DNA from: Pseudomonas sp. BN417
Lineage (GTDB): Bacteria > Pseudomonadota > Gammaproteobacteria > Pseudomonadales > Pseudomonadaceae
Direction: 5' to 3'
Assembly: GCF_029871205.1 (NCBI RefSeq)
Contig: NZ_SSOJ01000106.1
Span: 1 to 56,059, forward strand
DNA length: 56,059 nucleotides
Shown: one piece after another, positions 45,896-50,661 of the stretch
Position numbering within the stretch: position 1 is the stretch's first letter
How the letters are laid out: the number at the start of each line of letters is the position of its first letter
The notes under the pieces: generated by a model
Database searches by the model: none
What the model saw: the letters and a program-made list of their open reading frames with translations, nothing else
Told to the model about the DNA's origin: nothing
Made by a program: the position numbers and the translations under genes

Positions 45896-46534
45896 TCAAT
45901 CGTCGGAAGTCTTCGCCTTGTACTCGCACAGGTCCTCGATGCGGCAGGCGCCACAACGTGGTTTTCGCGCCACGCAAACGTAGCGGCCATGCAGGATCAG
46001 CCAGTGGTGGGCATCCAGCAGGAATTCTTTTGGTACGAACTTCAGCAGCTTCTTCTCCACCTCCAGCACGTTCTTGCCGGGGGCGATGCCGGTGCGATTG
46101 CTGACCCTGAAGATGTGCGTATCCACCGCCATGGCCGGTTGGCGGAAGGCGGTGTTGAGCACTACGTTGGCGGTCTTGCGGCCGACCCCGGGCAGGGCTT
46201 CGAGGTCTTCGCGGTTGTCCGGTACCTGGCTGCTGTGCTTCTCGATCAGGATGCGGCAGGTCTCGATGACGTTCTTGGCCTTGCTGTTGTAGAGGCCGAT
46301 GGTCTTGATGTACTCGGACAGCCCCTCGACACCCAGGGCATGGATGGCTTCCGGGGTGTTGGCCACCGGGTACAGCTTGGCCGTGGCCTTGTTCACGCCC
46401 ACGTCAGTGGCCTGGGCGGAGAGGATGACCGCGATCAGCAGCTCGAAGGGCGTGCTGTAGGCCAGTTCGGTGGTGGGGTTGGGGTCGTCGTCGTGGAGGC
46501 GGCGGAAGATTTCGTAGCGTTTCGCGGCGTTCAT
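45896..46534 (-). CDS. nth: Endonuclease III (Nth)
   Basis: The 212-residue DNA glycosylase/AP lyase removes oxidised pyrimidines. It has the helix-hairpin-helix LEALPGVGRKTANVVLN with the catalytic Lys, the catalytic Asp in AVDTHIFRV, and a C-terminal 4Fe-4S loop with spacing C-x6-C-x2-C-x5-C (CVARKPRCGACRIEDLC). The start overlaps the rnfE stop (ATGA), so it is translated from the rnf message. Confidence 0.96.
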   Translation of the reverse strand: MNAAKRYEIFRRLHDDDPNPTTELAYSTPFELLIAVILSAQATDVGVNKATAKLYPVANTPEAIHALGVEGLSEYIKTIGLYNSKAKNVIETCRILIEKHSSQVPDNREDLEALPGVGRKTANVVLNTAFRQPAMAVDTHIFRVSNRTGIAPGKNVLEVEKKLLKFVPKEFLLDAHHWLILHGRYVCVARKPRCGACRIEDLCEYKAKTSDD

Positions 46535-47103
46535 CTGGAGTCAGCTGTCTGGTTGGTCAGGCGGCGCCAAAGCGCCAGTAGCGTACCTAGCAGGATAAAG
46601 GCTCCGGGCGCCAGGGCGAACAGGGGAATGCCGTCAGCGCCGAACTGGAGGGTCCAGGGCAATGCGGCCTGTCCCAGCAGCCAGTCGAAATGGGCGAACA
46701 GGCTGGCGTGGCCCAGGGCTTCGCGCAGGGCACCCAGCAGCAGGGCGAGCAGGGCGAAGGTGAGACCTGCGCGCAGGCCGTCGAAGGGGCCTGTGGACTC
46801 CTCGCCGGCCAGTTGCAGGCAGGGCAGTACCAGCAGGTAGAGATAAGGGCCGAAGGCGCGTTGCAGCTCGAAGGCACCAGCTTGCATCAGCAGGTTCGCC
46901 AGGCTGGCCAGCAGGCCGGCCAGCAGCAGGGCGCCCAACCAGTAGCCGACGCCGTCCAGATGCCGGCGCAGGATGGGCAAGGCCAGGCCGAAGAGCAGCA
47001 GCAGGGGCAGGCCGGCCAGGGCCAGGCCGAGGCCTTTCACCAGCAGGTCGGTGGCGCCCACCAGCAGCGCCAGGCCCATCAGGCCAAGGTGGTGGGTATT
47101 CAT
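46531..47103 (-). CDS. rnfE: RnfE-like membrane subunit, one cluster cysteine missing
   Basis: The 190-residue protein has about six hydrophobic helices and RnfE/NqrD-type landmarks such as ALREALGHASLF and ALAPGAFILLG. In characterised RnfE the cysteine in LGLCPL and the one in VTNC help to bind an intramembrane [2Fe-2S] cluster. Here the first site reads LGLMGL and the second VLPC, so only one ligand remains. The segment before the first site is also shorter than in E. coli RsxE. The ATG at 47103 overlaps rnfG (ATGA); a longer in-frame start would lie inside rnfG. Confidence 0.8.
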   Translation of the reverse strand: MNTHHLGLMGLALLVGATDLLVKGLGLALAGLPLLLLFGLALPILRRHLDGVGYWLGALLLAGLLASLANLLMQAGAFELQRAFGPYLYLLVLPCLQLAGEESTGPFDGLRAGLTFALLALLLGALREALGHASLFAHFDWLLGQAALPWTLQFGADGIPLFALAPGAFILLGTLLALWRRLTNQTADSR

Positions 47104-47717
47104 GGCGAGGCCTGCCCGGCGCTGCCCAGCAGCTGTTGGCGGTGGCCGTCGAAGAATTGCAGCGCGTGCTGGGTGGCGCTGACCACGGCGCGGGAGGTGA
47201 TGGTGGCGCCGGCGATCTGGTCGAACTGGCCGTTGTCGGCCTTCACCCGCCATTCCGCTTCCGGGTGACCGGCCAGGGAGGCGTCGGTGAATGTCCGCAG
47301 CCAGGGGCTGCGCGCCGGCTCCATGCGGTCGCCTATGCCAGGGGTTTCCCGGTGGCCGAGGACTTTCATGGCCAGCAGCCGGCCATCCGGGCGGATGGCC
47401 AGCAGCAGGCGGATCGGGCCTTCGTAGCCTTTGGCGGTGGCGGGTAGCAGCACCGCGACCGGAACGCCTTCGCGTGTGGCCAGCCAGGCGGAAGGCGGGG
47501 GCGGGCTGCCCAGCAACTCGCTGGGTGGCAGGGGGATGGGCCGGGTCAGCGGATGGTTGTCGTAGCTGCCGGCGGGGAGCAGGTCGAGCAGGGCGCGCTC
47601 GTCGGCGGCCTGGCGCCCGGCCTCGATACGCCCGGCCAGCAACTGGTTGGCGGCGACCAGCAGCGCCAGGCCGAGGCCCGCGAGCAGGGCCAGGATCGCC
47701 ACGGTGCGGCCCTTCAT
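47100..47717 (-). CDS. rnfG: RnfG, FMN-binding subunit
   Basis: The 205-residue protein has one N-terminal membrane helix (about 5-25) and a periplasmic FMN-binding domain. The covalent FMN attachment motif is kept as AGATITSRAV (Thr as attachment residue, about residue 175). Other family stretches are GYEGPIRLLLAIRPDGRLLAMKVLGHRETPGIGD. Stop and start overlap rnfE and rnfD by 4 nt each. Confidence 0.9.
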   Translation of the reverse strand: MKGRTVAILALLAGLGLALLVAANQLLAGRIEAGRQAADERALLDLLPAGSYDNHPLTRPIPLPPSELLGSPPPPSAWLATREGVPVAVLLPATAKGYEGPIRLLLAIRPDGRLLAMKVLGHRETPGIGDRMEPARSPWLRTFTDASLAGHPEAEWRVKADNGQFDQIAGATITSRAVVSATQHALQFFDGHRQQLLGSAGQASP

Positions 47718-48721
47718 GGCTGCGCTTCCTGGTCGCGCATGGCGAGTCGGTCAAGCGTCGGCACCAGCAGGTTCATCAGCAGCACGGCGAAGGCGACGCC
47801 GTCGGCGTAGCCGCCCCAGGTACGGATCAGATAGACCAGCAGGCCCGCGCCAACGCCGAACAGCAGGCGGGCGCGGTCGCTGCCGGCGCCGGAGACCGGC
47901 TCGGTGGCGATGAAGAAGGCGCCGAGCATGGTGGCGCCGCTGAACAGATGGAACAGCGGCGAGCCGTTGGAGTCCGAGCCCGAACCGTTCCAGCAGAGCA
48001 GGCTGATGACGAAGAGGCTGGCGAGGAACCCCGTAGGCGTATGCCAGCGGATCACCTTGCGTTGCAGCAGCAACAGGCCGCCGAGGAGGAAGCCCAGGTT
48101 GACCCACTCCGCGCCGCGCCCGCCGAAACCACCGAAGGCAGGGTGGCCGCTGAAGAGTTCATCCACGGTCAGGCGGTCGTTGTGCTTGAGGCTGTCCAGG
48201 GCGGTGGCCTGGCTCCAGCCATCCACCAGCCCGTCACCGAAACCCACGACCTGCTGCAGGGCATCGAGCAGGCCCGTGTGCTGGCCGGGCGCGGGCCACT
48301 GGTTGAGCTGCCCCGGGAAGGCGACCAGCGCCAGGGCATAGCCGAGCATGGCGGGGTTGAGCGGGTTCTGGCCGAAGCCGCCGAACAGGGCCTTGCCGAA
48401 GAGGATGGCGAAGGCGCAGGCGCAGGCCGTCAGCCACCAGGGCGAGTAGGGCGGCAGGGCCAGGGCCAGCAGGGTGGCGCTGACCAGGGCGCTGCCTTCG
48501 CCCAGCAGCGGCTGGTTGAAAAGCGCCGTGTCCGGCACTGCGGGCTGGTGGCGCAGGCGGCGCACCAGGGCCTCGCAGGCGAGGACGACGGGAATGGCCA
48601 CCAGCAGTTGCAGCAGGCTGCCCCAGCCGTACTGCCAGAACAGCGCCAGCAGGCCCGGCAGGCAGGCGACCAGCACCAGCTGCATGCTGGGTCGCGGGTC
48701 GAAGGCCGGGCGCGTGGTCAT
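47714..48721 (-). CDS. rnfD: RnfD, membrane flavoprotein subunit
   Basis: The 335-residue integral membrane protein has about ten helices and the covalent FMN motif SGATMLGAFF (about residue 258, Thr). FGGFGQNPLNPAMLGYA is a strong NqrB/RnfD signature. It starts 12 nt after the rnfB stop; in other gammaproteobacteria rnfC lies between rnfB and rnfD, but here there is no room for it. Confidence 0.92.
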   Translation of the reverse strand: MTTRPAFDPRPSMQLVLVACLPGLLALFWQYGWGSLLQLLVAIPVVLACEALVRRLRHQPAVPDTALFNQPLLGEGSALVSATLLALALPPYSPWWLTACACAFAILFGKALFGGFGQNPLNPAMLGYALALVAFPGQLNQWPAPGQHTGLLDALQQVVGFGDGLVDGWSQATALDSLKHNDRLTVDELFSGHPAFGGFGGRGAEWVNLGFLLGGLLLLQRKVIRWHTPTGFLASLFVISLLCWNGSGSDSNGSPLFHLFSGATMLGAFFIATEPVSGAGSDRARLLFGVGAGLLVYLIRTWGGYADGVAFAVLLMNLLVPTLDRLAMRDQEAQP

Positions 48722-48733
48722 GGCCGGCGGTCG

Positions 48734-50110
48734 CTAGCGCTGGTCATCGAGGGCTCGCTCGGCCTTGGCCAGGCGCTCGCGGGCCTGGGCCAGGGTGGCC
48801 GGGTCGGTGCCGGCCTGGCGCTCCAGCTTGCTGAGGTCGGCGCGGGCGTAGGCCAGTTCGGTTTTCAGGGCGCGCATGGCCGGGTCCACCGGGCGTTTGT
48901 CGATGCGTTGCAGGTTCGGCGGCTGCTTGCCGGAGGCGTCTTCGGCGGCGTGCAGGGCCTGTTCCGCGTCGGCCAGGGCTTTGCGCAGCGGCGCCAGTTC
49001 CGCTTCGCTCGCACCGCGTTGCTCTGCGCCCTTGAGTTCGGCACGGCGGCTGGCGAGGGCGATCTTGGCCTGCTTGAGGCGAGCTTCGCCGGCACTGGGT
49101 GTCGACGCCGCCGGGGTGCCCTGGCAGGCGTCCAGGCGTTGCTGGGCCTGTTCGACGGCGGCGCGCAATTCTGCCAACTGGGCCTGCTGTTCGGCGCTCG
49201 GGGTTTCACCGAAGGCCTTCTCGGCCTTGCTCAGCTGGGCGCGGCTCATGGCGGCGGCGATCTTCGCCTGTTTGAGGGCGGCTTCGTCCACCTGCGGGGC
49301 CGGCGCCTCCATGGCCGTCTTGAGTGCGGCCTGGGCCTTGTCGTTGGCGGCACGCAGCTCGGCGACCTGGGCCTGGAGGTCCGAGGTGCCGTAGATCTCC
49401 AGCTGAGTTTCAGCCTTCTTCAGCGCCACCTGGGCCATGGCGGCCTCGATCTTCAGGCGCTTCTGCTGGTCGCTGAGGCTGGGAGCGGCGGCCTTCTGCG
49501 CCTTGACCCGCTCGATGGCGGCCTGGACAGGGTCCAGCGGTGCGGCAGTGGCTTGCTGGGGCTGGGCCTGGGCCTGGGCCGCGCGGGCAGCACGGGCTTC
49601 GCGCTCGGCCTGGCGACGGGCTTCGTCACGGGCGAGGCGGGCGTTGCGGAATTCGAAGCGCTCGCGGAACTGGTCGGCGCGCTGACGCTGGGCACCGGCA
49701 GCCGGCTCGGCCAGCGGCAGGATGTCGATGCAGTCCACCGGGCAGGGCGCCACGCAGAGCTCGCAGCCGGTGCACTCGTCGCTGATGACGGTGTGCATCT
49801 GCTTGGCGGCGCCGACGATGGCGTCCACCGGGCAGGCCTGGATGCACTTGGTGCAGCCGATGCATTCGGCTTCGCGGATAAAGGCGATCTGCGGCGGCAC
49901 CGGGCCGTTGGGCGCATCCAGGGGCAGCGGCTGGACGTGCAGCAGGTCGGCCAGGGCGATGATGGTGGCGGTGCCGCCGGGCGGACACTTGTTGATGGCT
50001 TCGCCCTGGGCGATGCCTTCGGCGTAGGGCTTGCAGCCGGGGTGGCCGCACTTGCCGCATTGGGTCTGCGGCAGCAGGGCGTCGATGCGCTGGATCAGGG
50101 CCTGGTTCAT
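48734..50110 (-). CDS. rnfB: RnfB-like ferredoxin with long repetitive coiled-coil tail
   Basis: The 458-residue protein starts directly with the 4Fe-4S domain (cysteines 18, 21, 26, 42 in [17 protein letters not shown] and KCPPGG). Two ferredoxin clusters follow (83-93, [12 protein letters not shown]; 113-123, [12 protein letters not shown]). The N-terminal membrane helix of E. coli RsxB is absent. After about residue 140 comes a charged Ala-rich tail with four repeats (about 218-266, 278-328, 344-389, 411-458), each of the form LKxAKIxxAxxRAxLxKAE...LAxLRxAxxxAxxxL, probably helical hairpins or coiled coils. A tail segment, [16 protein letters not shown], resembles the C-terminal repeats of RsxC. 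A fusion of rnfB with the 3' end of a lost rnfC is possible. Confidence 0.88.
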
Positions 50111-50661
50111 TGCGCCCCCATGCCGTTGAAGCCGAGGAAGGCCAGGCCCATCAGGCCGGCGCAGATCAGCAGCATGGGGGTACCACGGAAGGGAGCCGGC
50201 ACATCGGTTTCCTCCACTTGCTGTAGCAGGTCGTCGAACAGCCTGAGCACCAGCCAGAAGCCGAATCCACCGCCAATGCCCAGGCTCAGGGCGGCGGCGA
50301 AACCGCCTGCGCTGCCCAGCAGCATGGCGCCCAGGGCCGCGCCGTTGGCCAGCAGCAAGGGCCAGAGGCCGTCCCGTGGCAGGGCAGGGCGCAGCCGGCT
50401 AAGCAACTGCAGGCATAGCCAGGCGAGCGGCGCCAGCAGCGGCAGGAAGAAGAACAGGCGCAGCTGGCCGAGGCCCAGCGGGGCGAGCAGGAACTGGTCG
50501 AGCAGCCAGGCGAACGGCGTGCCCAGGGCGATCAGCGCGCCGCCGGCCAGGGCCAGGGCCTGGCTGCGAGGCTGGCGCAGGCTGTCGGCGCCCAGGGGCA
50601 GGCCAAGAAGCAGGTTGTTGACCAGGGCTGCGCCGAGCAACGTGAGGATGAATTCGATCAT
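50107..50661 (-). CDS. rnfA: RnfA-like membrane subunit lacking cluster cysteines
   Basis: The 184-residue protein has about six helices. It keeps the family start LLGAALVNN, the [13 protein letters not shown] segment and the end LAFLGFNGM. The cysteine of the canonical LGLCPF site is absent (region reads [11 protein letters not shown]) and the TTNC site reads LLANG. Two other cysteines sit at non-canonical places (WLCLQ, LICAG). It is the first gene of rnfA-B-D-G-E-nth and overlaps rnfB by 4 nt. Confidence 0.82.

What the first reader, a model, noticed from the sequence alone, without database searches (positions are those of the whole stretch)
46531..50661. Rnf complex without RnfC and with its intramembrane iron-sulfur ligands lost
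The genes rnfA-B-D-G-E-nth are contiguous, with 4-nt overlaps at most junctions and 12 nt between rnfB and rnfD, so rnfC is absent from its usual place. RnfC is the soluble-side subunit that exchanges electrons with NADH. In characterised Rnf/Nqr complexes four cysteines of RnfA and RnfE bind a [2Fe-2S] cluster inside the membrane. Here both RnfA sites ([14 protein letters not shown]) and one RnfE site (LGLMG) lack the Cys. RnfD and RnfG keep their FMN motifs (SGATMLGAFF, AGATITSRAV), and RnfB keeps all its cluster cysteines. Selection seems to have preserved an assembly with a different electron path or role, for example a periplasm-facing flavin redox device or a SoxR-reducing system.
Basis: partly seen in the sequence, partly recalled or inferred. 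Interest (0 to 1): 0.78.

Follow-up and report, generated by a model that had tools for sequence, protein, structure and literature searches.

The report
Remodelled Rnf complex with RnfB-RnfC chimera
Many Pseudomonas species carry a rebuilt version of the Rnf membrane electron-transfer complex that has lost its NADH subunit and its buried iron-sulfur cluster but kept its flavin sites, and it looks more like a working one-way electron line to the outside of the membrane than like a decaying pump.

Summary
The operon rnfA-B-D-G-E-nth has no rnfC; both RnfA cluster cysteines and one of two in RnfE are gone. The same form is in 18 of 18 genus genomes, at least 15 more of 198 family genomes, and 80 of 80 named loci read. 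New: (1) RnfC was not cleanly deleted: its C-terminal tail is fused to RnfB, which also lost its membrane anchor (tail model hits 113 of 113 class RnfBs, 0 of 23 canonical). (2) RnfA Cys26 became Asp (109 of 113), RnfE Cys95 stays (111 of 112), RnfD lost its RnfC-docking arm (113 of 113) and its riboflavin ligand Asp became Glu (113 of 113), while both FMN threonines remain. (3) ApbE is in 15 of 15 genomes where this is the only Rnf/Nqr complex, and in 1 of 20 tested without any. (4) One further genome shows a separate, apparently convergent case with other ligand losses. Best reading: a half-Rnf that passes electrons from the cytosol through RnfB*, RnfD and RnfG to the periplasm, with RnfA/E as scaffold. 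Direction, partners and function are inferred. New variant of a known kind.

The parts
50107..50661 (-). rnfA, cluster-less (184 aa)
   Evidence: PF02508; below the NCBIfam cut-offs for RnfA/RsxA: 83.1 of 229.3 and 88 of 240 bits
50584..50586 (-). codon of RnfA Asp26, at the position of cluster ligand Cys26
   Evidence: D in 18/18, 12/15, 79/80; C in 5/5 canonical
50341..50343 (-). codon of RnfA Gly107, at the position of the second cluster ligand
   Evidence: no Cys in 113 of 113
48734..50110 (-). rnfB* chimera (458 aa): ferredoxin head of RnfB + tail of RnfC, no membrane anchor
49709..50110 (-). RnfB head (res. 1-134) with 12 cluster cysteines
   Evidence: TIGR01944 221.6 bits, cut-off 68.7
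48737..49678 (-). tail (res. 145-458) homologous to the C-terminal tail of canonical RnfC
   Evidence: model of canonical RnfC tails hits it; none of 23 canonical RnfB
47714..48721 (-). rnfD (335 aa): FMN Thr173 and riboflavin Asn kept; RnfC-docking arm lost
   Evidence: TIGR01946 351.7 bits, cut-off 207.05
48203..48205 (-). codon of RnfD Thr173 (DGWSQAT), predicted covalent FMN site
   Evidence: T in 113 of 113
47900..47902 (-). codon of RnfD Glu274, aligned with riboflavin ligand Asp249 of A. woodii
   Evidence: E in 113/113 of the class, D in 5/5 canonical rows
47100..47717 (-). rnfG (205 aa), FMN Thr172
   Evidence: TIGR01947 151.1 bits, cut-off 102; T in 111 of 111
46531..47103 (-). rnfE (190 aa), one of its two cluster ligands lost
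46819..46821 (-). codon of RnfE Cys95, the one ligand of four kept
   Evidence: C in 18/18, 14/15, 79/79
45896..46534 (-). nth (endonuclease III), last gene of the operon

Best explanation
A functional, remodelled Rnf ('half-Rnf') that no longer pumps by the known mechanism and no longer uses NAD. An in-frame deletion between the ferredoxin domains of rnfB and rnfC removed the end of RnfB and the NADH/FMN/Fe-S core of RnfC, leaving an RnfB head carrying RnfC's tail (RnfB*). RnfB* is now a subunit without membrane anchor that sits at, or near, the old RnfC place under RnfD. Electrons pass from a cytosolic ferredoxin-like donor to RnfB*, to riboflavin and FMN in RnfD, to FMN in RnfG, and on to an unknown periplasmic acceptor. 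RnfA/E keep their fold but not their [2Fe-2S] cluster and hold RnfG and RnfD as a scaffold. Shown: chimera, lost ligands, kept flavin sites, lost docking arm, purifying selection, ApbE co-occurrence. Inferred: how the fusion arose, docking of RnfB*, electron direction, acceptor, lack of pumping.
For: Chimera in 113/113. The RnfD N-terminal SPH-type arm, which I equate with the arm buried in RnfC in C. tetanomorphum Rnf (PMC9588780, passage), is in 20/22 canonical and 0/113 class RnfDs. FMN Thr kept in RnfD 113/113 and RnfG 111/111; riboflavin Asn 113/113. A. woodii AE1-Cys mutants lack Fd:NAD activity (PMC11889175, passages), so the A/E path should be dead. ApbE 15/15 versus 1/20, within one genus 9/9 versus 0/3 (Fisher values, kinship not corrected). 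Own genome has no Nqr yet keeps two ApbEs and a single FMN_bind protein, RnfG. dN/dS genus medians B .21, D .23, G .31 against .22.31.36 in canonical operons. A separate genome, G124, repeats the same set of changes from the canonical side of the RnfD tree: fused RnfB without anchor, no RnfC core, arm lost, A/E ligands lost, FMN sites kept. Inside-negative potential favours outward electron flow (general knowledge).
Against: No measurement of any flow, cofactor or complex. RnfA Asp26 and RnfE Cys95 are more conserved than a mere scaffold needs. The riboflavin ligand change Asp to Glu could weaken riboflavin binding (A. woodii D249A is inactive). rnfB-nth without other rnf genes occurs in the two records I opened, Acinetobacter and Legionella, so RnfB* may have a soluble job. 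The role of the RnfC tail is unknown, so its transfer does not prove docking at RnfD.
Confidence: 0.5

Rival explanations
1. Reductive decay: the operon is on the way from full Rnf to a lone soluble RnfB beside nth, and A, D, G, E are passengers.
For: metG-rnfB-nth in a Legionella adelaidensis record and rnfB-nth in an Acinetobacter record, both from the plasmids collection; rnfA is looser than in canonical operons.33 against .18; single rnfE pairs reach dN/dS .87; G124 lost ligands in another order.
Against: Median dN/dS .21 to .39 for the rnf genes (152 of 153 genus pairs); FMN and riboflavin-Asn sites invariant; class-specific fixed residues in RnfA D26, W136, D144; ApbE retention.
Confidence: 0.13
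2. The RnfC encoded elsewhere (RnfC2, next to an RnfD-like RnfD2 and ApbE) supplies NADH electrons in trans to the window complex.
For: Intact 475-aa RnfC with both cluster motifs in the same genome.
Against: RnfC2 in only 8/18 genus genomes; by the rows listed, no RnfC at E<=1e-20 in 23 of 33 class genomes; class RnfD lacks the docking arm in 113/113, whereas RnfD2 has a TPH start and the Asp ligand; RnfC2 sits beside its own RnfD2 in 4 of 4 loci read.
Confidence: 0.1
3. RnfB* works mainly in the cytosol as a ferredoxin for Nth, SoxR or another protein, with the membrane part regulating its redox state.
For: rnfB and nth stay at one locus in the class operons read (all but the contig end L173) and in the two orphan pairs; the RnfB head has the lowest dN/dS of the rnf parts.14.
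Against: Does not explain the kept flavin sites or ApbE; SoxR was not examined.
Confidence: 0.15
4. Reverse use: RnfG takes electrons from the periplasm and RnfD passes them inward to RnfB*.
For: Same cofactor chain; Rnf is reversible (PMC9588780, abstract passage).
Against: Inward electron flow runs against the membrane potential and no pump half is left to pay for it (inference).
Confidence: 0.08

Closest known systems
Canonical RnfABCDGE / RsxABCDGE
   Same: Same metG-nth locus in related genomes, same gene order, homologous A, B, D, G, E; FMN and riboflavin-Asn sites
   Different: No RnfC core; RnfB lacks the anchor and carries RnfC's tail; no full [2Fe-2S] ligand set; RnfD docking arm lost and riboflavin ligand Asp to Glu
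NQR/RNF-like half systems of Meheust et al. 2021 (PMC8238504, passages)
   Same: Works like it: one half of the semicircular path, RnfD/NqrB plus FMN domain, proposed one-way flow
   Different: Those have an NqrF-type NAD-binding domain fused to RnfD and are mainly from Actinobacteria and CPR; here the input is an RnfB-RnfC-tail chimera and RnfA/E remain
Orphan RnfB beside nth (one Acinetobacter and one Legionella record)
   Same: No N-terminal membrane helix, RnfB head plus a charged tail, beside nth
   Different: No other rnf genes in the stretch read; tail similarity weak (at most 8.7 bits to RnfC tails, 12.5 to class RnfB tails)
NqrD of Na+-NQR (8a1t)
   Different: One of two cluster ligands missing in RnfE and both in RnfA

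Membership tests
RnfABCDGE complex | RnfC (NADH/FMN/2x[4Fe-4S]) encoded with the operon | tested here: not met
   no RnfC core in the operon; 0 of 80 named loci
RnfABCDGE complex | four Cys of RnfA/RnfE for the intramembrane [2Fe-2S] | tested here: not met
   1 of 4 kept
RnfABCDGE complex | RnfA and RnfE pass the curated family cut-offs | tested here: not met
   83.1 of 229.3 and 55.1 of 213.4 bits; a canonical relative passes, 275 and 263.5
RnfABCDGE complex | RnfB, RnfD, RnfG pass the curated subfamily cut-offs | tested here: met
   221.6 (cut-off 68.7), 351.7 (207.05), 151.1 (102) bits
RnfABCDGE complex | covalent-FMN threonines of RnfD and RnfG | tested here: met
   113/113 and 111/111; the bond itself not tested
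RnfABCDGE complex | RnfB membrane anchor helix | tested here: not met
   none upstream of the head in the 33 class operons inspected; present in the 5 canonical ones inspected
RnfABCDGE complex | ion-coupled ferredoxin:NAD+ oxidoreductase activity | not testable with these tools
   needs biochemistry
NQR/RNF-like half system (Meheust 2021) | RnfD/NqrB membrane domain fused to a PF00175 NAD-binding domain | tested here: not met
   window RnfD has PF03116 only
NQR/RNF-like half system (Meheust 2021) | components of only one transmembrane electron path | tested here: inconclusive
   A/E genes are present but lack three of four cluster ligands
SoxR-reducing Rsx system | reduces SoxR with RseC | not tested
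   SoxR and RseC were not searched

The most novel reading that the evidence does not exclude
RnfA/E has been turned from a redox-switched into a proton-switched alternating-access carrier. The [2Fe-2S] cluster sits where four half-helices meet (PMC12174285, passage); here a protonatable Asp26 (109/113) takes one ligand place, with RnfE Cys95 retained (111/112), and RnfA has fixed W136 and D144. H+ entry through RnfA/E would then drive or gate the swing of RnfG, coupling outward electron flow through RnfB*-RnfD-RnfG to proton movement or to transport of a small molecule.
Probability: 0.09. Interest if true: 0.88.

Novelty: new variant of a known kind. Interest (0 to 1): 0.68.

Why it matters
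Rnf and Nqr are ion pumps, and whether ions move through RnfA/E or RnfD is disputed (PMC11889175, PMC12174285, passages). This family is a natural knock-out of the RnfA/E cluster and of RnfC that kept RnfD and RnfG, so it can separate the two halves of the electron loop. It also shows, apparently twice, how a bidirectional pump could be cut down to a one-way line through a gene fusion. Its B, D and G pass NCBI's Rnf models, so the change is easy to overlook in annotation. It is carried by species such as P. fluorescens, P. protegens, P. brassicacearum and P. resinovorans.

Tried and rejected
Rejected: (1) a sequencing or single-strain artefact: same form in 18/18 genus genomes. (2) Tail similarity as mere low complexity: 0 of 113 shuffled tails and 0 of 23 canonical RnfB hit the RnfC-tail model. 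(3) A simple vertical clade: RnfD puts the 33 class rows on one side of a branch (97), but metG+nth do not group their species (5 changes, at least 3 forced; AU p 0.0003); long branches may pull the RnfD rows together. It has a fused RnfB (202.2 bits to the RnfC-tail model), RnfA ligands Ser and Ala, RnfE first Cys kept and second lost, no RnfD arm, riboflavin Asp kept, and its RnfD falls on the canonical side (support 80, long branch). So the fusion probably arose at least twice; the class count is a lower bound. Two incomplete genomes (G104, G118) also show RnfA without a listed RnfC and were not followed. (5) Class RnfA outside Pseudomonadaceae: in 390 genomes of the order the best listed score outside the family is 131.5 bits, against 237.6 to 280.5 for class members (at most 8 candidates scored per genome). 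(6) The second RnfC_N match (C156) lies in a biotin-carrier carboxylase-type protein. (7) RnfA was never accepted for structure prediction; only RnfE was modelled.

Rows dropped or limited: RnfE of L092 and L097 was missed by tblastn and read by frame; L173 is a contig end without G, E, nth; L181 RnfG (115 aa) was left out. ApbE was tested in 20 of the 28 genomes without PF02508, those that one search listed. One search kept 80 of 233 relatives. The RnfB anchor was inspected in 33 class and 5 canonical operons. dN/dS used 152 of 153 class pairs and 126 of 190 canonical pairs, by my own Nei-Gojobori script; canonical pairs are more distant, and in the 44 close ones rnfE is .37, so rnfE is hardly looser in the class. 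Regex counts misread the RnfD FMN site and some RnfG motifs; the column counts replace them. Literature: the searches listed no title or abstract start that names an RnfB-RnfC chimera or cluster-less RnfA/E in Pseudomonas; no paper was read whole.
Full report
Anatomy. The window is contig C100 of a 6.56-Mb genome. The - strand operon is rnfA-B-D-G-E-nth, downstream of metG, with 4-nt overlaps and one 12-nt gap. The genome search found one RnfA and one RnfE, one FMN_bind protein, RnfG, and two RnfD-like proteins.

The chimera. Canonical relatives hold rnfA-B-C-D-G-E at the same metG-nth place. There RnfB is short, with a membrane helix ahead of the ferredoxin head in the 5 operons inspected, and RnfC ends in a long charged tail. 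In the window class the protein starts directly at the head (window against L104 and L102 RnfB: 64 and 62%) and runs, just after the second cluster motif, into that RnfC tail. A model of canonical RnfC tails hits 18/18 genus, 15/15 family and 80/80 named RnfBs (59 to 332 bits), 0/23 canonical RnfBs and 0/113 shuffled ones; it does not hit the unlinked RnfC2. An in-frame deletion or exchange between the two ferredoxin domains would explain this; the mechanism is inferred. In A. vinelandii Rnf the RnfC C-terminal helix touches RnfB (PMC12174285, passage).

RnfD and RnfG. Of the two A. woodii riboflavin ligands, Asn123 is kept in 113/113 and Asp249 is Glu in 113/113, against Asp in 5/5 canonical rows of the alignment (20 of 22 by motif in the larger canonical set; the other two, L100 and L193, are a second Rnf type). 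The N-terminal SPH-type arm is present in 20/22 canonical (same two exceptions) and 0/113 class RnfDs; in C. tetanomorphum the RnfD N-terminal arm is buried in RnfC (PMC9588780, passage). RnfD thus looks adapted to life without RnfC.

Is it alive? Genus medians of dN/dS are A .33, B .21 (head .14, tail .25), D .23, G .31, E .39, nth .06, from 152 of 153 pairs, with single pairs up to .87 for rnfE; canonical medians are A .18, B .22, C .34, D .31, G .36, E .29, nth .10, from 126 of 190 pairs, and E .37 in the 44 close pairs. B, D and G are as constrained as in canonical operons; A is looser, E hardly. ApbE is found in 15/15 genomes whose only PF02508 complex is this one and in 1/20 tested without any, 9/9 versus 0/3 inside one genus (Fisher 5e-9 and 0.005, not corrected for kinship). 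In the window genome Nqr is missing, yet an ApbE remains beside sthA.

Spread. 170 of 198 family genomes have PF02508. At least 33 of the 198 carry the class: 18/18 of the genus and 15 others that I fetched and checked; by the rows listed, 23 of the 33 have no RnfC at E<=1e-20. One of them (G007) also has a complete Rnf of another type elsewhere. Class RnfDs form one side of a branch (97), but the flanking metG+nth do not group these species (AU p 0.0003), so the operon was either replaced at this locus between lineages or duplicated and lost.

A convergent case. G124, missed by my first choice, has RnfA without a listed RnfC. Its RnfB is fused to an RnfC tail and lacks the anchor, RnfA has Ser and Ala at the two ligands, RnfE keeps the first and loses the second Cys, the RnfD arm is gone, the FMN sites and the riboflavin Asp are kept; its RnfD sits on the canonical side (support 80, long branch). 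The same chain of events - fusion, loss of the RnfC core, of the arm and of the cluster, but not of the flavin sites - thus probably happened twice. It also shows that Asp26, Glu274 and Cys95 are features of the main class, not of every such complex.

Mechanism. What is left is the RnfD-RnfG arm plus an Fe-S input. The best reading is a one-way line: donor, RnfB*, riboflavin and FMN of RnfD, FMN of RnfG, periplasmic acceptor. This works like the NQR/RNF-like half systems of Meheust et al. (PMC8238504, passages) but is not a member of them, since RnfD carries no NAD-binding domain. It is not a complete Rnf either: several defining features were tested and not met. Against the reading stand the strong conservation of Asp26 and Cys95, which a scaffold would not need, and the rnfB-nth pairs of the Acinetobacter and Legionella records, which show that an RnfB without anchor can live beside nth alone.

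Verdict. Its electron direction, its partners and whether A/E still move ions remain open.

Noticed in passing
L005:7452-9865 (own genome C157, about 27.95-30.36 kb), - strand: A two-gene rnfC-rnfD-like module (475-aa RnfC without tail; RnfD2 with FMN motif DAFVGAT and riboflavin Asp), with divergent apbE in 3 of 4 loci read; RnfC2 is in 8 of 18 genus genomes. It looks like the opposite half: NADH to RnfC to RnfD2.
   Followed up: partly
L236:4675-9373 (genome G124), - strand: A second, apparently convergent fused-RnfB operon with different cluster-ligand losses.
   Followed up: partly
L234:3486-4970; L235:1849-4725: rnfB-nth without other rnf genes in an Acinetobacter record, and metG-rnfB-nth in a Legionella record: the same locus cut down to an RnfB without anchor.
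   Followed up: partly
L215:5989-7029 (own genome C135): apbE beside sthA, a place that I recall as the nqr-apbE-sth neighbourhood of other pseudomonads, although no nqr was found in this genome.
   Followed up: no
L060 (G094, C2:1276482-1277897): The RnfC2 match of this genome contains one internal TGA, so the module may be broken there.
   Followed up: no
window:50107-50661: RnfA of the class has fixed W136 and D144 besides D26; their role is unexplained.
   Followed up: partly
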